Positions 24,158-37,468 of a stretch of 64,000 bases of DNA are shown in pieces. The notes under the pieces were generated by a model. That model saw nothing but the letters and a program-made list of their open reading frames with translations, searched no databases and was not told where the DNA came from. Every line of letters begins with the position of its first letter. The first letter of the stretch is position 1. Where the stretch lies: NCBI RefSeq assembly GCF_000002865.3, contig NW_001865040.1:1901428-1965427 (forward strand). The letters run 5' to 3'. A program made the translations under genes and the position numbers. The stretch is from Monosiga brevicollis MX1 (lineage: Eukaryota > Opisthokonta > Choanoflagellata > Craspedida > Salpingoecidae).

Positions 24158-26272
24158 TTAGTTTGTGCCAATGATGCCTGCCTCGGCCAGCTTGGCAATC
24201 TTGTTGGCAATTTCCGGGTTCTTCAAGTGCCTATCGACATGCAAGATAACAAACACACACACACACACACACACATGAGGCCGGTTGACAGACGGACACA
24301 CCCTGGGCTCTTCGATGGCGATGCTTCAGCGGCTTGGCAGGCACGTACTCGCGCAGCGCATTGGGATCCTGGCTCATCTGTTGCAGGATCTGCTGCATGA
24401 CTGGATCTGCCATGATTTGCTGGATCTCGGGGTCCTGCATGGCTTGCTGTGCACGCTCCTCGCGGCTCAGACCAACACCCCGCTTGCCCATGGCCACCTG
24501 CAAGATAAAAGGAGATCCCCACCAACGGGCAATGCAGTGAGCTAGGCCGAGAAACCAAGGTTGCAGTTGCTACCACCGCCTGCACACGCACGTTTCGGAG
24601 TCCTTCGTGGGCCTCAGACACATTGGGGTCCAGCTCGAGCGCCTGTGAACAATGCAGGTGGTCGCCGTGCGTTAGAAGAGAGCTCAAAGGGCTGCACGCT
24701 CGCGGTCAGTGCCTTTTCGCTCTGCGTGACGTACGCGGTTGTACGCCTTCTCAGCGTCGGAGAACTGTTTCAGCACAAGATGAATGTTGCCCTTGCGCAA
24801 ATGTCCTACAACACCAAACACATCTTTAGTCCTGATGCACAACAACACGTATTCACGCCATAGTTCATGACACACCCTTAACAAACTCCGGGTCCAGCGT
24901 AATGCAGGTGTTGCAGTCATCCAGCGCCAGGTTGAACTCGGCAAGCTTGGAGTAGGCAGCTGCACGGTTGCTGTACAACTTAGCATCAGATGGGTCGCGC
25001 TTGATGGCATCCGAGTAAAACTTCAGGGCACCCGGGAAATCTCCAGCCTTGAACAACTCGTTGCCTTGAGCCTTGGCCTCTTGAGCCTTGGCAGGGTCCA
25101 AATAAGCTTTGCGCTCCTCCTCCTTCAAAGCCTTTTCGGCCTTCTTGCGCTGGGTCAGGTAGTCTGAGGCACGGTCGTTGGCGATGGCCTTGTCATACCA
25201 CCGCACGGCGTCTTTCCACTTGGACTGAACCGAATAAGCCTTGCCAACTCGGGCATAAGCCTTGGCAATCAGCTTGTAGTCGGCACGGTTATCCTGGCCC
25301 ACCTTTAAAAAAAAAAAAAAAAAATAAAAAATAAAATGAAACAGAAAAGAAAAAGCAAAAAACGACAACACACATGTGGATATCAATGCGCTTGACAATG
25401 CTCAAAATGGGGCATCTCGTCCAGGCCTGGGTGTGCTCCAGATCGTTTCCTTTGCCATGGACGTACCTCTGCTGCCTTCGTGCAGATTTCGATGCAGTTT
25501 TCAAAATCCTTCTGCTCCAGGTACACAGCTCCAAGATTGAGAAGGAAAACCATGTTCGTTGGCACAAGCTCCGAGGCAGCCTTGTAGTGCTAAACCACGG
25601 TAGGCAACAACGAGGCCCCACACAGCCAATTATAGGCATGAGGCATGCTGGTGTATGGGTCACAAAGAGTCAATCAAGGGGGGATCGGGGTTGGAACCAG
25701 ACACGCTGCATTCAGCACCAACCTTGATGGCAGTCTCAAAGTCCTTCTTCTTGTATGCCTGAGTACCCTTTTCTTTCTCGGCCGCAGCTTGCTTCTGCTT
25801 TGCCGCAACCTCGGGATCGACGTCTTCAGCGGGCTCCTCCTCAGCCTTGGGCTCGGGCTCAGCAGCCTTGGGTTCAGGTGCCTTGGGTTCAGGTGCCGCG
25901 GGCTCATCGCTGGCTGTATCCATTCCCTCGGATATATCAATGTTGTTACCCATCAGCACACCCATGCACATGAGCAGGCGCTGATCAAAGTTGTTGGCAA
26001 TGGCAGCCGGATTGGCCCGAATGGCCTCGAGTGTGGCACGGAAGGAGGGGTCCGCCAAAAAGGCGGCCGTCTTGGGGTCCGCTGCCAACTTCTCAATGGC
26101 GCCGGGGGCCGAGAACATCTGAGCAATCTGCATCATGCCATTGTCTGGCGACTTCATGGATTGTGCCAGGGCGCGTTCAGAGTCAGTCTTGCCATTTTGC
26201 AGCATGGCATTGTTAGCATCGTATTTCAGGCCCTATGTAGTCGTCAGTCATTGATGTGAGTGTAAGAACAAT

Positions 26273-26340
<68 letters not shown>

Positions 26341-26863
26341 CAAGCACACCTCTTCATAGGCTTCGAGGGCAGCCGCAAAATCCTTCTGGCCGAAAAGAGC
26401 CGCGCCCTTGCGACCGTAGCCCTGCCACGCGCATATGTTATGTGCCAAGACGCATTGGTGTAAGAGCACAGTCCAGGGGCGACAGGCTTCCATCGCACGC
26501 TGGTGCCATTGGTCCGTGCGTAAGGCAGTGGTGCCCGGCGTACCTTGCCCCAATCCTTCTTGAGGGCAATCGTCTTCTCAGCATCGGCCAAGGCCTGGTC
26601 GAATTGGTTCAGAGAGGCGTAGGAGGCACTGCGGTTGGAGTAGAGCACATGGTTGCTTCCGTCAACCTCAATGGCCTTGGTGAAAAACTCGATGGCCTTT
26701 TTGAAATCCTTCGCGGCAAAGGCGGCATTGCCTTGAGCCTTGAGTTCGTCAGCCTGGAATAGTATGGAGAGCTCGACAGGGTTAGAAGGGGTACACAGGA
26801 GGCGGGCAACAGCGTTGAGCGGCAGGTCGCGCAAGAGGGACGTGGGAAGGGCCTTCGTACCAT
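24158..26863 (-). CDS. STIP1: Hsp70-Hsp90 organizing co-chaperone STI1/HOP
   Basis: STI1/HOP bridges Hsp70 and Hsp90 in the cytosol to pass client proteins. Ten coding exons join in frame: 26861-26863, 26544-26753, 26350-26421, 25723-26232, 25467-25589, 24876-25302, 24735-24805, 24577-24642, 24349-24497 and 24158-24230, about 567 aa (human 543). Order of parts: TPR1 (ELKAQGNAAFAAKDFKKAIE), DP1 (PSFRATLEAIRANP), a Pro/Glu-rich linker, TPR2A (KEKGTQAYKKKDFETAIKHY), TPR2B (AQEAKAQGNELFKAGDFPGA) and DP2, ending NPEIANKIAKLAEAGIIGTN. The first coding exon is only the ATG: donor GTACGA follows it at once, and exon 2 opens with ADELKAQGN. The third intron (26233-26349) contains a 64-base poly(T) on the coding strand. 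A poly(A)-like run also lies in the intron near 25305-25325. Confidence 0.95.
26274..26337. repeat. 64-base poly(A)/poly(T) run inside an STI1 intron
   Basis: An unbroken run of 64 A on the plus strand makes up over half of a 117-bp intron of STI1, where it reads as poly(T) on the coding strand, close to the 5' splice site. The length may be affected by sequencing slippage. Confidence 0.9.
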
Positions 26864-27503: not shown

Positions 27504-30500
27504 TTAAATGAGCTCCTCCGCCTCGTCCGCGGGTATGGTGGAAGGCTCATCCTCATCACTGTCATCGTCATCCTCTTCCTGGTGAACGGCGGTCGGCTTG
27601 GTGGCGCTGGTGGCAGGAGCTTCGTCCTCAGAATCGGCCTCAGAGTCCGATGAGCCTTCTTCAACGACGACCCGTCGTGCACCGGCGACGCCGGCTGGCA
27701 TCGGCCGACCGTCACCCATGTCTGAATCATCGTCCGAGTCCATGTCCGTAGCCAATGTCTCTTCATGCCACTTGCGTAGAACGTCAGGACCCGCTTCCAT
27801 CCAGTCCTCATGCCACACGCACAGGTCACCGAAATTGGGCAGGGATGCCAGAATTGAGGCACCTTGCAGCGCTGCATGCTGCCGGTGCGGATGTGCATGC
27901 ACGGTCACCTGGACCGAAGAGGGCAGCAAATGCTTGAGCTCATTGGTCAGCCGCTCAGGTAAGCCGGGTAGCAGACTGCCACCACCGGCCAGGTAAATGT
28001 TGCGAGACAATGCCTTGCGCATGTCGATAGGAGACGACATGATGGCGTTGTATACCAAGTCATGTAGGCCAGGTACATCCTGTCGAGCCAAAAAAAGACA
28101 GAACAAAAACCAATGAACGGAAAGACAGGGCGGGGGCGGGAGCAAAGACCACAGATTGGGGAGCAGGAGATGGATAGATTGACTGCGGTCAATGGGGTGA
28201 TGCAAACTTAGAAAAGCACGGATTTAAAGACGAGTTCGCAAAAGGAAGAGGTGTGTGTGTGAGTGTGTGTGTGTGTGTGTGTGTGGCCTAATGCCATGAC
28301 CTAAAGTTTTGTCGACGCACCTTGCCCCACAAAACAGGCTGAAATAGGCCTTCGGCGCAGCGGAATCGCTGACCCGCAAGACTAAATGTTTTGGTGCCAT
28401 CAGGCAGCGCAAACCGCCGAACATCCACATGACCCGCATCTATCAAGCCCTTGTCATCATCCTGAGCCGACTGGTAATAGTCGCGCGCCACATAGGCCAG
28501 CCGTTCCTTAACGTAGCGGCCTACGTAATGCTCGACTGGCGAAAAGAAGCGATGTCCTGCCTCAGACATCATTCGAGTCAGTGATTCCGAGATGAAGCCG
28601 CCACCCAGCCGCATCTTCGTCACGCCCTTTTCAATGACGTAGCCCGAATCAAGGGGAATAATGTCCAGGCGATCACCAATGTCCACAATCACGCCCGTCG
28701 TGGCGTTGTATGAGTACATGGACAAGAGGGCTTGATGCTTCATGTACAGGGCTGGTACATTGTACGTCTCAAAGAGAACCTCAGCAATCTTTGCCCGCTC
28801 TCGGTCGGAGGTAAACTGTGGCTCTGTCACAATCAAGGGCCGTTCCGTCGACTCGACCTCGAGGCGCTGGAAAAGATCACCATACAACACCTCGAGTGCA
28901 TCTGCATCCATCGAGTCGGAAAAGTTGGTGGCGCTGCGCAGCGGAAACTGAATGGACGACTTGGTGCGCACCGCGGGCATCAGGGCGTCCATGCCGCAAC
29001 GCATCTTCCCCGTCCCCTCGCGCGGCTTAGCCACGCACGCAGGCATGTAGATTGACGGCCAGGCCGTGCCTCGAGGATCTGCAAAGCCAGCCCGAGCCGA
29101 GCAGCTACCAATGTCGAAAATGAGCGCCAGGTGGCCGTCGGTGCCCTGGCCCGCACCGTCGGTGGTTGCAGCACTGCTACCACCAGCTCCCGCGCCCATA
29201 CCAGCGGGACCGGCTGCGTGACGACGGAAGGTGTTGGCTTCGTCGTCCAAGGCAGCCTTCCAGTCCTCCAGCTCCTGTGTGCTGCTGGCTCGTAAGGTCA
29301 TGGTCGTCTTCTTGCGCGGGTCGAAAATTTCAAGCAAATTGCCGCCCTTGTAGCTAATGTCCGAGCCACGCAGTCGGATAAAGCCCGAAGCTCGATCTGA
29401 CTTGTCATCATCATAGTAAAACAATTCACCCTCGCGCACTTTGAAGTAGCGGCGATGCCAGCGCCGAATCATCGTGGATTTTTGTCGGCCCTTGGGCAAC
29501 TTTTCCAAGTAACCCTCAATGCGCACGTTGCCCTTGCTAAAGACGTTAAGGAGGGCGTCGCTGTCACCCGACTTGTCCAGCTTCTCGGGGCGACGCGTGT
29601 CATAGAGGGCCTTGAGCACGGCCGTGGGGTCCCAATCTTGCACTTGTGCAAAGCGATCCAGGTCCACATCTTCATCACCTGCCTTGAAGTCGATGTTGCC
29701 ATACTGGTCCACCAGGTAATCGCCTTCGACATGCAGCTGCTTTTCATCGTCGTCGAGCGGAACTGTTTTGCTGCCGCGACGGGCTCCGCGCATGGTTGTA
29801 ATGGTTTCCACCTTTTTGCGGTGAGCCTTCTCCCCCTGACCCACCACCTCATACGTCGTCGTTGTTTCGACTTCCACAAGCCCGTCCTCGTCTGCCCGGT
29901 GCAAAGCCCGGGTCCAGCGGTCCAGCAGCTCAGCTTCCTGTGCCTTGAGCTGCCACTCCATACCGGACCGAAGAAGAATATCCACGTGCTGAGCGGCAAT
30001 GCCCAGGCCCTCCAGATCAGCGGCTTTCAGGCCCGTGACCACGCGCAAATCGTCATAACCCGAACCGACAAAGGTCTCCACGTACTCGGCCAAATCGTTG
30101 CTGCGGAGCCAGCCAGATACCGTCACAGGCAGGGTGCTGATGACAGTTTCTTCTGTCTGAGCCACGCCGTCCTCGGAGACAGACTCACGAACTGACTTGC
30201 GTTGTTTGGGCACGGTAACGCGCACGGGTCGGCCGTGCTTTACACGGTCGGTGGCGAGTGAGTCAAAAAGGTCCTCATCGATAGGCTCTTCGTCCAGGGT
30301 GGCAGGGACGGCCTCCTCCTCATCCAGACCGGCAGCCTTGGCTTTGAGGCGGTCGGCCAGCTCAAAATGAGTGGTGCAGCCGCGAAAGCTGGTGCTCGTG
30401 ACTTCGCCCAACATATCAAGGTAGCTGCGCGGAAGTGCAGCGAGTTCACCACGGTCGTAGTCAGCTAGATTGCAAGTAAACCTTTCAAGGCGGCCCAGCT

Positions 30501-30984
30501 CAAGGAGCTCCTCATCAGCCTGTAAAAAGCGGTGGAGCTCTGGCTCATCATGCAACAGTGGGTCACGTGCAAGTAGGGTAAAAAATTGACTTAGCTCTTC
30601 CAGGGCCACGTCGTCCTCGGATATTTCCGGCAGCTTTTCAGCCACGGGCTGCTTGGTGGTGGCCTGCAGCTCATGTGCAATCCATTCAATCTCTTCCTGA
30701 GTACGACGCACAGTGCTCTCCGAGGCTTTGAACCGCGTCTCGTCTGTGACAAAGTGTACTTCATAGTCCATGAAGGAGTCTTCTTCCCACGTCCAAGTCA
30801 TCGGGTTGCTGATGCTCACGCGCGTGGGCACGTGCTCAGCCTCAATATCATGCAAGAGGGCGGTAAGAGCTGCAATCGCATCGTGGTGCTGACCATGGCC
30901 AGACGGGCTACTATGTTTGGGGCTCGCGTTGCGGCTGAAGCCGGAGGCCTGTGAGGCTAGAGACCGTTTGGAGAACAGGCCCAT
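27504..30984 (-). CDS. PX-SAM-PH-actin fusion protein
   Basis: Two coding exons (28321-30984 and 27504-28079) join in frame to 1079 aa. Residues about 52-154 look like a PX domain, the phosphoinositide-binding fold of sorting nexins (TRVSISNP..., then LEELSQFFTLLARDPLLHDE and HRFLQ). Residues about 284-342 are a SAM domain (VSGWLRSNDLAEYVETFVGS...DLEGLGI). Residues about 487-590 are a PH domain (IEGYLEKLPKG...RRWHRRYFKV...ELEDWKAAL). From about 618 to 1000 runs an actin-family domain: FDIGSCSARAGFADP (phosphate 1), VIVDIGDRLDIIPLDSGY (phosphate 2), NIYLAGGGSLLPGLPERL (adenosine) and GASILASLPNF near the end. A Ser/Asp/Glu-rich tail follows. It is probably a membrane-linked cytoskeletal scaffold; whether the actin part binds ATP or copolymerises is unknown. 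The start at 30984 begins MGLFSKRS, just inside the upstream hexamer repeat. Confidence 0.88.
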
Positions 30985-31665
30985 GCTCGCCAATACTGCA
31001 AAGTTGTCATCATCTATCGCGCACCACAGGTCGAGCCGCACGAGGCAGAAGACATATGAGCGGTCGACGCGCTGACAGACACAGACACAGACACAGACAC
31101 AGACACAGACACAGACACAGACACAGACACAAACACAGACACAGACACAGACACAGACACAGACACAGACACAGACACAGACACAGACACAGACACAGAC
31201 ACAGGCACAGACAAAGAGACAGAGACAGAGACAGAGACAGAGACAGAGACAGAGACAGAGACAGACACAGAGACAGAGACAGAGACAGACACAGGCACAG
31301 GCACAGACACAGACACAGACACAGACACAGGCACAGACACAGGCACAGAGACACAGAGGCGGGCAACCAGGCAGACAGCCAGCCAGGCAGACGTCAAGAT
31401 CCTGCATTTACATAGGCACAAGTGCACATAAAACAAACGAATAAAACAACAACCCTCCCACCACACAATTATCAAGCACGAATAATGGTAAACCTTGGCC
31501 ATCAAGCTTGATGAATTCGGCGGCCGTCGTTTCCTTGTCCTTGTCCCCATGGTCTATGTTTTCTGTGAGCACGTTTGGTGAACAGGAAATGTCAAAGTGA
31601 GGTGGCGACGCGCGGCATGCTAAAATCGAGCAAGGTTGATACAACATCGGGGAAGAACAGGCTGG
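30985..31665. other. spacer with long hexanucleotide repeat
   Basis: This lies between the end of the NPF-motif protein and the start of the actin fusion, both on the minus strand, so it holds the promoter of the actin-fusion gene. A long run built of ACAGAC and close variants (AGACAC, CAGAGA, CAGGCA) fills about 31076-31345. Frames through it, such as Cys/Val or His/Arg strings, are repeat translations. Confidence 0.7.
31076..31345. repeat. (ACAGAC)n hexanucleotide tandem repeat
   Basis: About 270 bp of ACAGAC-type hexamers with interspersed GAGACA and GGCACA variants. It lies just upstream of the actin-fusion coding start. A shorter array of the same unit lies 3 kb away inside the next gene (34128-34252). 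Confidence 0.9.
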
Positions 31666-34435
31666 TCAAACTTGGGGCTTGGGGCGTAGCATACCAAGGT
31701 CGAGGTCGCTGAGGTCATGGAGCGGCAGGCCCTTGGCTTGCAAAAGGGTGTTGCAATCGAGAAGCTTCTGACGATAGGCCTGGCGAATGCGAGCCACACG
31801 CGCATAGACTTGTCGCGTGAGCCGGGCGTCACCGTCAGCCTCGGCGACGGCCTTGCGTTGAAGATCCGGAAGCAACCGCAGCTGTTGTTCCAGTTTTTGC
31901 ATACCCGCCTCCATGGCACGAGTTTCTTCATCTCCAGCAGTCGGAGCATCTACGGCTGAGCTGGCTTGGAAAGCCGCAAAGAGGTCTTCCTCTTCCTCCT
32001 CATCAGGGCGGTGTTGGCGGAGAAGGCGAGCATAGCGTTCCACCACGCCGTTCTCATCGTAACGCTCGAGTGGCGCAGGCAACAGGGAATGGAAAACAGA
32101 GCGCAACACCTTGGCGGCCTCAGCCAGGAGGCCATTGACGGCCAGCACGTCAGGATCATCATCATACTCGGCCAGCTCTTCTTCGCGCATCGGAAGTGGA
32201 AAGGGCAGGGCCCCAAGGCCTGATTCAGAGCTGAGTCCGACCGTGGGGTCAGCTGTATCGTCGGTTGAGGCGTTTTCGGCGTCCGCAGCAAAAGGGTTGA
32301 CGTCGCCACGCAGCGAACCGCGACGAAGAAAGTCGGGGGCAAAAGGGTCAGCCGACTGCCCTTGCTGTAGACGGCGTTCGCGGGCTTCGGCGCGCTTACG
32401 AAAAGCTTCCTCACGGCGCTCCACCTCTTCGCGTTCCGCAGCCTCAAGAGCGGCCTGAGCTTCTGCTGCACGGCGCTGCTCGGCGTCTCGCTCGGCTTGC
32501 ACCTCTTGCTGGGCCAACTCGAGGGCCATGCTTGCCTGCAAAGCTTCGTGCCGGGCTTTCTCGACGCGCTCTTGCTCTTCGGGGGTCAGCTCAGGCGCGG
32601 GTTGGACCTTGACTTTGATCGGAGCTGAGGGGCCCTTTTCAGCCTTGGGCGCTGGGGCTTGACCGCCAAAGGGGTTCCAAGCGGAGAGGCCATCGGTGGC
32701 AGTGGTCGGCACAGCAGAGGAAGGGGTGTCGCTCGGGCTGGAGGCGTCTTGCGAGGGTTCAGCGGCGTCATTTTTGGGCAAAGCGGACGCCGCCATAGCA
32801 TCGTCTGACGCGTCCTCGATCACGGGGCCTGATACAGCCGACTCTGCTTGATGCGTTTCTTGATGATGGTCAGAATGTGTCAGAGGTGATGGGCTGCGGG
32901 TGGATTTGGTGCTTGAACTTGCACTGCTCTTTTTGGAGGGGTTGGCCTTGCCCTGGCGAGCACTCTGAGCCTTGGTGGTTGACTTGGTCTCGGATGCCAC
33001 GGTCTTGCCTTTAACGCTGGGTTTGCGGGTCGAGGCGCTTCCGGCTGCCGTGACTTTTGCCGAATTTTGGGTCGAAGCCTTCCTGGCCACTGATGTTTTG
33101 GTGGTGGCAGAGGTCGGGCGACCTGCCGCACCCTTGGTCGACTTTGAGCCCGTCGACGTTGTGTTGTTGGCGGCGGACTTGGTGGCTTTGCTGGCAGTTT
33201 TACCGGTGCCGGCACTGGTGGCAGCAGTCTTGGCGGTCTTAGCAGTCTTGGCGGCGGCACTGGCCTTGGTTGGCTTGGGTGCTGCGACTGTTTTTGGGGT
33301 CTTTGAGGTAGAAGCCGGTGCTTTGGTAGCAGTGGACTTGGCCGAGTTGGAAGTGGATGTTCGTTGAACTGGGCCAGCAGGTTTGGGGGACGAACGATTG
33401 GGTGTGGGCCGTGGTGATGATCGACCCCTGGATGCGGTTCGGGTGAGGGAAGACGCTCCTGTCGTCGTGCCTTTGGCAATCTTACCAGTCCCAGCTTTCT
33501 TCTTGGAGGTGGCCTTGACGCTGGATGATTTTTTTGGGGTCGGGGTCGTTGCTGGTGTAGACGTTTCGCTGCTGGTAGTGTCCTCTGCGTCACTGCCCGC
33601 ACCCGTAACTGGGTCTTCAGCAAGGTCCTCAGGCTCGTTCGCGGATGCGTCTTGGCCATGATCGCGGTCAGCAGACGCGACGGTGTCATCGGCCGCAATC
33701 GACGCTGGATCCTCAGAGGCATCACCCTGATTCTCTGCCTCAAGCTCATCGGTTTCATCATTGTCCTCATCCATGCCAAACAAAAGTCCGGTGGGAAGGC
33801 CTCGAGCCTGGTGTGCCGCCGCCGGTTGTGAGCTGAGATTCGCAACTAACAGATAGCGTTTGACGTGCACCACGACCATGCGCGAGGGCTCACCTGACCA
33901 GCACGGCGTTGTTCGCGCTCTCGAAGACGTCGTGCATTGTAGGCCTCTTCATCTTCCTCCTCGTGCTCAGGCGCGTCAATCTAAGGCAATGGAGGCGGAA
34001 CGGGTGGGCATGGATCGGCTTGATTTGAGCGGATGGTCAAATTTCAGTGCCCAAGCGTGTTGCCGAGTGAGAATTTACGAGGCCAGTACCTGTGCAGTTG
34101 CAGCTGGTGTCGCACCTCCCTACCAAGTCACATACACAGACACAGACACAGACACGGACACAGACACAGACACACACACAGACACAGACACAGACACGGA
34201 CACAGACACAGACACACACACAGACACAGACACAGACACAGACACAGACACAGAGGCGGTGAGCTGCTGCAAGAGACGCAGTGGCATCGAGCCGTAGACC
34301 ACGGGGATACAAAGTGCATGCGCGAACCATGGTTGATTTCATGTCGGCTAGGTTATCATCAAACATCTTCATCATATCAGCAGCCTCTTGCCGCGCACGA
34401 GCAACGCGCGCAGCCTCATCCTCACTCTCCGCCAT
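31666..34435 (-). CDS. large disordered protein with NPF motifs, function unknown
   Basis: A minus-strand gene with exon 1 at 34435 down to about 34333 (MAESEDEAARVARARQEAAD), a small exon near 33893-33980 (acidic, AYNARRLREREQRR), and a long last exon from about 33832 to 31666. The long exon has four parts. First is an acidic N-terminus. Second is about 250 residues rich in Lys, Ser, Thr and Ala. Third is a Glu/Arg coiled coil with two NPF tripeptides (SAWNPFGG and DVNPFAAD). Fourth is a folded-looking helical C-terminus ending HDLSDLDLGMLRPKP. NPF motifs bind EH domains of endocytic adaptors, and the basic Ser/Thr region may bind microtubules or nucleic acid; both are inference. The intron between exons 1 and 2 contains an ACAGAC repeat. 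No family is recognised. Confidence 0.6.
34128..34252. repeat. (ACAGAC)n hexanucleotide tandem repeat inside an intron
   Basis: About 125 bp of ACAGAC units with some ACACAC and ACGGAC variants, within the first intron of the NPF-motif gene. The same unit makes the longer array at 31076-31345. Confidence 0.9.
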
Positions 34436-35109: not shown

Positions 35110-37468
35110 ATGTTCTACTCCGATGTGATCTTGGCCAAGCGGTGAGTTACAAACGTTTGCGAAAGATGGAGGCCGTCCGATTGTAACCTTCTGTGGGCAT
35201 GCATCTGTCTCTGGCGCCCCCCTGCTTTTTTTTTTTTCGCCTCGTCAAAGGTCGCGACGTACCCGGCTGCCCCTCATCTCCATGTTCGTCCTCGAATGCT
35301 TGTGCTATCAGCGGTGCGCTGAGCAAAGTATGGGTGGCAGCTCATTGGACCAAGCGGCTGACCCGTAAGCAGATCAGTGATGCCAATGTTGTTGAGGCTT
35401 GCAATACCATCATCAAGCCGCCAGTCGAGCTAGCCCTGCGCACTTCAGGGCACTTGCTGCTCGGCGTGGTGAAGATCCACGACGAGAAGCAATCGACCCT
35501 CGTCTCCGACTGCAACTTGGCCTTTCATCGCATTCAGGTCCGGCCGAGATCTTCCCGTTGACTGGTCTGGGACTTTGCCGCCTCGTTCTTTCGCTGTTGG
35601 TGTCGGCAATGAGGAGGATTGGCGATTCTGTCGACAAATCGTTCCCGCCAAAATCCCTCTGTGAATTCTGACACCCCAGGACGTCTCTCTAGCGTGTGCC
35701 CCACTCACAACTGCTCGTGTGCATTCCTCTGATGATTGGGTGGTGGCGTCTATGGCGTTACATAAAGGTGGTCTTTCGCCCAGATGCCGTAGACGCTCCC
35801 AACACCACGGCTGCGTATGCCACCATCACCATGCAGGACGAGCTCGTGGACTTTGACGACAACATGTTTGACGAAGTGTGCGTCCTGGTTGTCTCATTTC
35901 TCATGCTTGCCACTTGGTGCAATTGTGATTTGGTTCTCTTGGCCATCGTGTTTCGATTTTCACGCCCCGTGGGCGCACAAAACTCATGGTCTCATGCTGA
36001 CTTGTCAAACCCCTATCATCTGATAGAGAGTTGCCACCCCACGACGAGTTTATCGCCCCTCGCGACGACCTCATGATGGAGGAAGACTTTGTCACTTCAT
36101 CTCAATTCCACGCGCGGGGGGCCGCGGACGAGCTTGATGATGCTTTCCCACCATTCATGGAGCCGGAAGTGGGTCGTCACGACACCACCGTCGAGCAGGG
36201 CCGCGATCGCGATGACACGACCATGTTTGAGGATACAATGGACAAACCCATGGAAACCTCCATGGCCCGGCTCAGCCCTGATCCCTTCCCACCCATGTTG
36301 GAAGACATGCCCGAGCCAGATTTGGCTGAGCCAGATGCGGCCCAACTTCAGGGCGGGGATGCCGCAGCTGACACCACCATGCCTGAATTGCCGGCAGCAC
36401 CACACACGGCCACAGTGTGGAACGTGGTGGAGGATGCAGATGAAATTGAACTGCCGGCACGCGCCGCAGCCGCGCCTGCGCCAACTCGGCAGGGCAATCG
36501 ACTATCCAAGCGCCGTTCGCGCAAGCTCGTCATTGACGCCGTCACCACCATCACCAATGCTGAGATGAAGGCCAATCTGGCACCTGGGGGCAACAATGAC
36601 CTTTCTCTGCAACCCTGGAGTGCCGAATTTTGGTTGGCCGAGTGGCCGCAAACGGGCCAAAAGCGGCGCTTTGAGGAGCATTTTGACCTGACTGAGGCTT
36701 TGCAGCCCTCTCTGGTGGCGATTGCCGCCAACCCCACGGTCGCCGGCGTGCTGCGTAAACGATTCCGGCCCGTGCAGCGGGCTGATTACGTGCCCGAGCG
36801 CATTGTTGAGACAGAGCTTCCCTTTGTAAAGGAGGATCTGCCCGAGCCTGATGCGCCAGACTTCAACATGACCGAGGATATGCAGCCTGGAGCGGCTATC
36901 GACTTTGATTTGGAGCCACCCGAGTTTAACGACCCGCTTGTACCAGAGGCTGACACGGAGGAGGCCACAACCTCACTTGCGCAGTCAGCACGCAAGGCGG
37001 CGCCCGTGCGTGGCCTCGATGACGAGGAAGACGAGGAGGAGGATGAGATGCTAGTCACGTCGGCGCAGTTTGAGGCCGCGGGCTGGTCCAAGCGGACCAA
37101 GAAAATGTTGAGCAACTTTCAAACATACTTTCAAGAAACTGATGAGCTCAGCTATGAGACGCTCACGACAAATCACACTCGGTATGATATGCGTGCGACG
37201 CAACAGGGTCAAGGGACGGCGGGAAAGCCTCGAACTGTTGGCTGGGGGTGTGCTATATTTCCATGTCCTGTCTTGTACACACGCTCACGTCATTGGGTGG
37301 TGCTACTCCTGACCATGGCTGCGCTTGGTGTTGCGTTTTAGGCGGGCTGCGGCGCAGACGCTATTGGAGGTTCTCGTTCTCAAGTCCAAGGGCTTTATTG
37401 ACGTTGAACAGGCTGAGCCGTTTGGCGACATTTCCCTGACAGCGCGCCCGCTGATGATGCAGTCGTGA
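35110..37468 (+). CDS. RAD21: cohesin subunit RAD21/SCC1 (alpha-kleisin)
   Basis: RAD21 closes the SMC1-SMC3 ring that holds sister chromatids together. Five exons join to 547 aa: 35110-35141, 35312-35537, 35768-35875, 36031-37181 and 37342-37468. The N-terminus MFYSDVILAKR-GALSKVWVAAHW, then KLTRK-like RLTRKQI and ALRTSGHLLLGVVKIHD, is the SMC3-binding kleisin domain. The middle is acidic and mostly disordered. The C-terminus (AQTLLEVLVLKSKGFIDVEQ) is the winged helix that binds SMC1. The start ATG is fixed by the invariant MFY opening, which sits in an 11-codon first exon. Central PWSAEFW and RRFEEHF blocks may contact SA/STAG. REC8, the meiotic paralogue, is less likely because the N- and C-termini both resemble RAD21. 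Confidence 0.93.

What the first reader, a model, noticed from the sequence alone, without database searches (positions are those of the whole stretch)
27504..30984. A PX-SAM-PH-actin fusion protein
One long exon plus a short one give 1079 aa that join a phosphoinositide-binding PX domain, a SAM oligomerisation domain, a PH domain and a full-length actin-family fold with an acidic tail. I know of no described protein with this architecture. It would place an actin-related module on a membrane-binding, self-assembling scaffold and could nucleate, cap or anchor actin at endosomes or the plasma membrane. The four domains lie inside one uninterrupted 888-codon exon, and the single intron falls within the actin part, so the fusion is not an artefact of joining two gene models.
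Basis: partly seen in the sequence, partly recalled or inferred. Interest (0 to 1): 0.85.

Follow-up and report, generated by a model that had tools for sequence, protein, structure and literature searches.

The report
A membrane-binding actin relative, long overlooked
The gene really does fuse lipid-binding and self-assembly domains to an actin-like domain, and it appears to belong to an undescribed family of membrane-linked actin relatives found from single-celled relatives of animals to sponges, corals, molluscs, barnacles and sea urchins, whose actin part has lost features that actin uses to polymerise and to split ATP.

Summary
The PX-SAM-PH-actin fusion is real. Pfam finds Actin, PH and SAM above cut-off. 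PX falls just under, but a PX profile of the gene and six relatives matches sorting nexin-3 at 1.2e-17. A relative's transcript-derived protein has the same fusion.

Two corrections. (1) The model is truncated. Longer relatives and GT-AG introns give six exons (34435-27504), 1868 aa; the proposed ATG is internal. The extra half has NPF (EH-domain ligand) motifs. (2) It is not a one-off. A PH-actin core was found in 46 named animal species of eight phyla, annotated "uncharacterized", "actin", "POTE-like" or "SETMAR" (PH called in 31 of 46, weak in 7 more rescanned). No vertebrate was among the listed hits.

The core is monophyletic against the genome's own actin and Arp1-3. Actin His161 is missing in 117 of 117 non-redundant members; the D-loop stretch is shortened in 110. 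Nucleotide-pocket residues are kept better than average, filament-contact faces are not, so nucleation is unsupported. Most likely it is a non-polymerising, nucleotide-holding actin fold used as a membrane-anchored docking module. SAM is seen only in the window type and one unplaced transcript. Ten literature searches listed no description. Function is inferred, not shown.

The parts
34328..34435 (-). exon 1 (residues 1-36), proposed start codon at 34435
   Evidence: lies in the stretch (residues 6-93) that matches the N-terminus of transcript-derived P0004 at 1.5e-8
34090..34119 (-). exon 2 (residues 37-46)
   Evidence: frame and GT-AG sites; weakest of the six exons
33894..33980 (-). exon 3 (residues 47-75)
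   Evidence: frame, GT-AG sites, alignment with P0004
31695..33807 (-). exon 4 (residues 76-779): low-complexity part with NPF motifs, then a helical block
   Evidence: matches P0004 (1.1e-24), P0006 (1.2e-15), P0007 (5e-4)
32668..32676 (-). NPF motif 1 (residue 453)
32290..32298 (-). NPF motif 2 (residue 579)
   Evidence: 2 seen in the N-part, shuffle mean 0.018, 0 of 2000 shuffles reach it
31695..32184 (-). block with helical look, kept in relatives (residues 617-779)
   Evidence: best 59.7 bits against relatives, best of 60 shuffles 26.2; helical by eye only
31014..31694 (-). intron 4, 681 bases, holding CTGTGT-type simple repeats
   Evidence: NFxVLxxMGL motif runs across the join in P0004, P0006, P0007
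28321..31013 (-). exon 5 (residues 780-1677): PX, SAM, WDP motif, PH and most of actin
30505..30825 (-). PX domain, SNX3-like
29953..30132 (-). SAM domain
29602..29634 (-). family motif WDPTAVLKALY just before PH
   Evidence: a degenerate form found in 190 of 193 sequences, (no chance control); place checked
29242..29523 (-). PH domain with basic beta1-beta2 stretch (EKLPKGRQKSTMIRRWHRRYF)
28321..29130 (-). actin fold, first part
   Evidence: fold of relative P0001
28993..29028 (-). shortened D-loop stretch (lacks actin residues 47-53)
28654..28683 (-). phosphate-2 loop DIGDRLDIIP, one residue short: actin His161 missing
   Evidence: 117 of 117 family members; place checked
28080..28320 (-). 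intron 5 inside the actin part, 241 bases
27504..28079 (-). exon 6: end of actin fold (to 27771), acidic tail and stop

Best explanation
The gene is the window lineage's member of an apparently undescribed actin-related protein family with a conserved core: WDP motif, PH domain, modified actin fold. Window-type members add PX and SAM in front of the core, and at least four of them a long N-terminal part with EH-binding NPF motifs. Proposed mechanism: PH (PX at best weakly) brings the protein to phosphoinositide membranes, NPF motifs tie it to EH-domain endocytic proteins, SAM and helical parts cluster it, and the actin fold holds a nucleotide without turning it over or polymerising, serving as a rigid docking surface that links membrane to cytoskeleton or trafficking machinery, as non-filament Arps do (recalled). 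Shown: domains, gene model by homology, family, missing His161 and shortened D-loop, NPF motifs. Inferred: lipid and nucleotide binding, clustering, docking. Identity as a PH-actin family member about 0.97; the mechanism as stated about 0.4.
For: Domains and confident model of relative P0001. Same fusion in transcript-named relatives. Family in animals. PH-actins separate from own-genome actin and Arp1-3 with support 100/100. Nucleotide pocket 13 of 26 residues identical to actin in the window gene against 114 of 369 overall; barbed cleft 8/24, barbed SD3 5/13, pointed non-D-loop 7/22, D-loop 1/15. His161 missing in 117 of 117; Asp11 kept in 115, Gln137 in 116, Gly156 in 117, Glu214 in 114; Lys18 is Arg in 108; D-loop stretch 8-12 residues in 110 instead of 17. 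Actin, Arp1, Arp2 and Arp3 of the same genome keep His161. NPF enrichment and EH domains elsewhere in the genome. PH beta1-beta2 stretch rich in Lys/Arg, median 7 in the 158 of 193 sequences caught by the pattern. The only full match in the own genome; the next best is actin itself.
Against: No biochemistry or localisation exists. In the PX, SNX3 has VRRRY (alignment); the family keeps the arginine before the tyrosine place in 1 of 7 (P0150) and the tyrosine in 3 of 7 (P0004, P0006, P0007), and the window gene (VRRTQ) keeps neither, so its PX may not bind PI3P. The pocket is partly changed (Lys18 to Arg, Lys336 to Tyr, Gln or His in 105, Asp154 to Asn or Ser in 29 of 117), so nucleotide binding is not certain. 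46 of 117 have a His three places before 161 (at 158), which might stand in. The contact lists are recalled and its Arp pieces are incomplete (Arp3 7/24 on the barbed cleft with 5 gaps), so templating is not excluded. Outside the window type, NPF before the WDP motif occurs in 1 of 185 sequences, so the endocytic link would be lineage-specific.
Confidence: 0.5

Rival explanations
1. Filament seed or pointed-end anchor: with the D-loop shortened but the barbed face able to accept actin, the membrane-held actin fold templates or holds filaments growing away from the membrane.
Against: Barbed-cleft residues are at background identity in the family (31% against 28-29% overall), while Arp2 pieces of the same genome keep 14 of 24. 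The test is weak: contact lists recalled, Arp pieces incomplete, Arp3 only 7 of 24.
Confidence: 0.15
2. Pseudo-actin decoy: the actin fold at the membrane recruits G-actin-binding proteins (WH2, profilin, cofilin, gelsolin types) without actin itself.
For: Tyr143 (60 of 71), Leu346 (59), Leu349 (62) and Phe352 (61) of the SD1/SD3 cleft are mostly kept.
Against: Cleft as a whole at background; Tyr166, His173 and the actin C-terminus changed. No direct evidence.
Confidence: 0.2
3. Rho effector: the N-terminal helical hairpin of animal members is an HR1-like Rho-binding finger, and the PH-actin core is the output.
For: Pfam HR1 1.8e-5 for the hairpin of P0150 (25.1 bits, cut-off 33.1); HR1 0.2 at the same place in P0008; hairpin profile in 43 proteins at domain E under 1e-3, 8 of them seeds; two long helices predicted in sponge-like P0065.
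Against: Only 2 of 8 hairpins match HR1 and none reaches the cut-off; the PDB profile search ranks unrelated coiled coils first (best 0.0084) and PKN1 only at 0.37; not found in the window type (hhalign probability 0.8%).
Confidence: 0.2
4. Artefact: two neighbouring genes wrongly joined, or a chance one-off fusion with no function.
For: Only that no cDNA of the gene itself was seen.
Against: PX, SAM, PH and most of actin in one open exon; same fusion in transcript-named relatives; PH-actin core kept across animals.
Confidence: 0.01

Closest known systems
Conventional actin
   Same: Whole actin fold, about 30% identity; the 60 best PDB sequence matches shown are actins, as are the structure matches listed for relative P0001; key pocket residues largely kept
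   Different: Fused behind PH; His161 missing in 117 of 117; D-loop stretch shortened in 110 of 117; filament faces at background
Actin-related proteins Arp1, Arp2, Arp3
   Same: Divergent actin folds beside actin in the same genome
   Different: They keep His161, bear no PH, PX or SAM in the known proteins (recalled), and fall outside the PH-actin clade. Arp4-Arp10 were not tested
Sorting nexin-3 (PX domain)
   Same: PX profile match 1.2e-17
   Different: SNX3 is essentially a lone PX domain (recalled); its VRRRY reads VRRTQ in the window gene
Yeast Boi1/Boi2 (SAM and PH scaffold proteins, recalled)
   Same: SAM and PH in a membrane scaffold that interacts with actin nucleators (start of abstract PMC9713459 seen in the listing)
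   Different: No actin fold (recalled); relationship not tested

Membership tests
Actin superfamily (Pfam Actin) | Actin profile above cut-off over the whole fold | tested here: met
Polymerising actin | D-loop present | tested here: not met
   stretch aligned to actin 39-55 is 8-12 residues in 110 of 117, against 17 in actin; 10 in the window gene by the seven gaps
Polymerising actin | His161 of the ATP hydrolysis site (role recalled) | tested here: not met
   missing in 117 of 117; a His at 158 in 46
Polymerising actin | forms filaments | not testable with these tools
   needs protein
Arp1, Arp2 or Arp3 class | groups with that class in a tree | tested here: not met
   PH-actins apart from actin and Arp1-3 pieces of the same genome, 100/100
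Arp4 to Arp10 classes | groups with that class in a tree | not tested
   no reference sequences were brought in
PX domain | PX profile match | tested here: met
   window protein alone 21.1 bits against 21.6; P0150 22.7, above cut-off; profile of 7 against SNX3 1.2e-17
PI3P-binding PX | arginine followed by an aromatic, RRRY in SNX3 (role recalled) | tested here: not met
   window gene VRRTQ; arginine at that place in 1 of 7, tyrosine in 3 of 7
PH domain | PH profile above cut-off | tested here: met
   44.5 bits, cut-off 25.1
SAM domain | SAM profile above cut-off | tested here: met
   32.5 bits, cut-off 23
PH-actin family named here | WDP motif, PH, actin fold lacking His161, in this order | tested here: met
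   window gene from 29634 through 29523 and 29130 down to 27771
HR1 Rho-binding domain (animal members and P0150) | HR1 profile above cut-off | tested here: inconclusive
   1.8e-5, 25.1 bits against 33.1, best of 8

The most novel reading that the evidence does not exclude
The common ancestor of choanoflagellates and animals already had a multidomain actin-related protein (helical hairpin, PX, SAM, PH, actin) that works as a non-polymerising, nucleotide-locked actin mimic at phosphoinositide membranes under Rho and endocytic control: an actin-family class outside the recognised Arps, kept in many animal phyla and lost in vertebrates and the standard invertebrate models.
Probability: 0.25. Interest if true: 0.88.

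Novelty: new variant of a known kind. Interest (0 to 1): 0.72.

Why it matters
Actin-family proteins are among the most studied in biology, and their classes are usually treated as complete for animals (recalled view). A PH-fused class present in sponges, cnidarians, molluscs, arthropods and echinoderms but hidden under names such as "uncharacterized", "POTE-like" or "SETMAR" would be a missing piece of animal cytoskeleton evolution. It would couple phosphoinositide signalling directly to an actin fold that probably cannot behave like actin. It can be tested in accessible organisms such as choanoflagellates, sea urchin or Hydra.

Tried and rejected
Gene-fusion artefact: rejected. Single-intron model starting at 30984: replaced by the longer model. 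Actin-face test for nucleator or cap: no face above background, but contact lists are recalled, the Arp controls are incomplete exon pieces and Arp3 did not stand out, so the test is weak. Hairpin as HR1: left tentative. Window-type helical block as the same hairpin: not supported. PX in sponge-like P0065: Pfam 7.7e-4 under cut-off, family profile 2.9e-4, single-sequence PDB search only 1.4 to a sorting nexin, model region of low confidence; left as probable. Weaker PX hits in P0096 (0.2) and P0094 (0.25) are not counted. P0150 joining the window type: not rejected (AU p 0.228). A second actin-like locus (L002) suspected by eye of a SAM in a neighbouring frame: no Pfam match. The VIA look at the whole model only tested the actin part.

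Full report
What is in the sequence. On the minus strand, 30984-28321 and 28079-27504 join across a 241-base GT-AG intron into 1079 codons plus a stop. Pfam gives Actin (9.7e-72, residues 619-991), PH (2.4e-11, 488-581), SAM_1 (1.1e-7, 288-333) and PX (4.5e-4, 84-156; 21.1 bits, cut-off 21.6). PX needed support. It recurs at the matching place in P0001 (0.0013) and P0004 (3.5e-4), weakly in P0006 (0.18), and not in P0007; in P0150 it is above cut-off. A profile of seven family PX regions finds sorting nexin-3 at 1.2e-17.

The upstream half matches P0004 at 1.1e-24 and 1.5e-8, P0006 at 1.2e-15 and P0007 at 5e-4. Two segments tested score 45.8 and 59.7 bits against maxima of 22.3 and 26.2 in 60 shuffles each. 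The motif NFxVLxxMGL (NFNIL in P0004) runs across the exon 4/5 join in the model and the three relatives. A shorter alternative start is not excluded, since P0001 begins near there. The new half carries NPF motifs: 2 in the window gene (shuffle mean 0.018, 0 of 2000 reach it), 6 in P0006 (0 of 2000), 2 in P0004 (3 of 2000), 1 in P0007 (46 of 2000). Only 1 of 185 sequences outside the window type has one before the WDP motif. The genome has EH domains, which bind NPF (recalled).

It is a family. A full-length search gave 10 relatives. A search with the PH-actin part of P0009 gave 123 (120 listed). One with the crinoid P0109 gave 93. Together these are 192 distinct protein ids; each search scored only about 8000 candidates. 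Names shown by the sources cover 46 species that I assign to eight phyla from recalled taxonomy: nine echinoderms, two hemichordates, seven cnidarians, one brachiopod, two nemerteans, 18 molluscs and six arthropods, and the sponge Amphimedon. In 45 of the 46 the match covers 97-100% of the PH-actin query; Tigriopus californicus has 73% and only part of actin. The precomputed Pfam column calls PH in 31 of the 46. Of the 15 without it (14 molluscs and Tigriopus), I rescanned 7, and all gave PH weakly (2.6e-5 to 0.0086, one just at cut-off); 8 were not rescanned. A Priapulus protein covers 31% of the query with no actin called, and a chytrid protein (25% identity over 44%) was dropped as an ordinary actin match. 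Names given include "uncharacterized", "actin", "POTE ankyrin domain family member J-like" and "SETMAR". No vertebrate name appears among the listed rows; that is not proof of absence. The window gene and P0001-P0007 are taken as choanoflagellate by inference; no call names the organism. A genome of 39.5 Mb in 57 contigs fits Monosiga brevicollis as I recall it.

Architecture. A degenerate WDP motif was found in 190 of 193 sequences (192 hits plus the window gene, no chance control). The PX profile hits 9 of 193 at domain E under 1e-3: seven are its seeds, the others P0005 (6.8e-9) and sponge-like P0065 (2.9e-4). The SAM profile hits only its eight seeds: the window gene, P0001, P0002, P0004-P0007 and P0150. 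P0150, an unplaced EukProt transcript product, has hairpin, PX, SAM, PH and actin. A helical hairpin near the N-terminus is found in 43 proteins. It looks like HR1, but no member reaches the cut-off. In a careful tree of 34 rows the window type is one clade (100/100), and all PH-actins used are separated from actin, Arp1, Arp2 and Arp3 of the same genome (100/100). Echinoderms, protostomes and the sponge-like group are each well supported; cnidarians weakly (83/83). Against a simple species-tree reading, the hemichordate falls with protostomes, not echinoderms (96/94). P0150's place and the order of the animal groups are not settled (larger quick tree, where the octocoral Paramuricea stands apart). 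Vertical descent from a common ancestor of the window type and animals is still the simplest reading. PX and perhaps SAM may be ancestral and later lost.

Mechanism. I commit to a membrane-held, non-polymerising actin fold used as a docking module, tied to endocytosis by NPF motifs in the window's lineage, with PH the conserved membrane element: its beta1-beta2 stretch has a median of 7 Lys/Arg in the 158 of 193 sequences that the pattern caught. PX is a doubtful lipid binder in the window gene: where SNX3 has VRRRY it has VRRTQ; across the seven regions the arginine is kept in 1 and the tyrosine in 3. Apart from itself, the gene's best match in the genome is actin.

Literature. Ten searches that ran over the held PubMed Central library showed no paper on a PH-actin or PX-SAM-PH-actin protein in their listings; subscription papers and preprints are largely outside it. 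Passages read: PMC12050087 (actin network evolution; 0 occurrences of PH domain or pleckstrin), PMC4169000 (Clytia; a hydrozoan-restricted PH gene WegD1, no actin link in the four passages), PMC2837644 (FYVE/PX survey that includes Monosiga; lists SAM_1 in a table of associated domains, 0 occurrences of actin in the main text). Other papers were seen only as listings.

Noticed in passing
window 24684-26834, minus strand: Downstream neighbour encodes TPR repeats (Pfam TPR_1 3.1e-18 in the frame 24865-25398), looking like an STI1/Hop-type co-chaperone (name recalled).
   Followed up: partly
window 36001-37341, plus strand: Upstream open frame of 446 aa that resembles a cohesin Rad21-type subunit by eye; Pfam gave only a weak Pinin match (0.16).
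   Followed up: partly
window 31100-31340, 34130-34260 and 28260-28286: Long CTGTGT-type and CA simple repeats sit inside introns of this gene; one makes a spurious 1039-aa open frame by reading on upstream of exon 5.
   Followed up: partly
L002 (own genome, contig C47, near 815824-816801): A divergent actin-like domain inside a 722-aa open frame with long extra flanks (Pfam Actin 9e-45); class not assigned.
   Followed up: partly
L004 (own genome, contig C52, near 271930-272976): A very divergent actin-like protein of 359 aa in one open frame (Actin 7.3e-40) lacking most of the D-loop region.
   Followed up: partly
P0159 (Plakobranchus), P0096 (Amphimedon), P0188 (Hydra): Public names of PH-actin proteins are misleading: SETMAR and POTE ankyrin family names.
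   Followed up: partly
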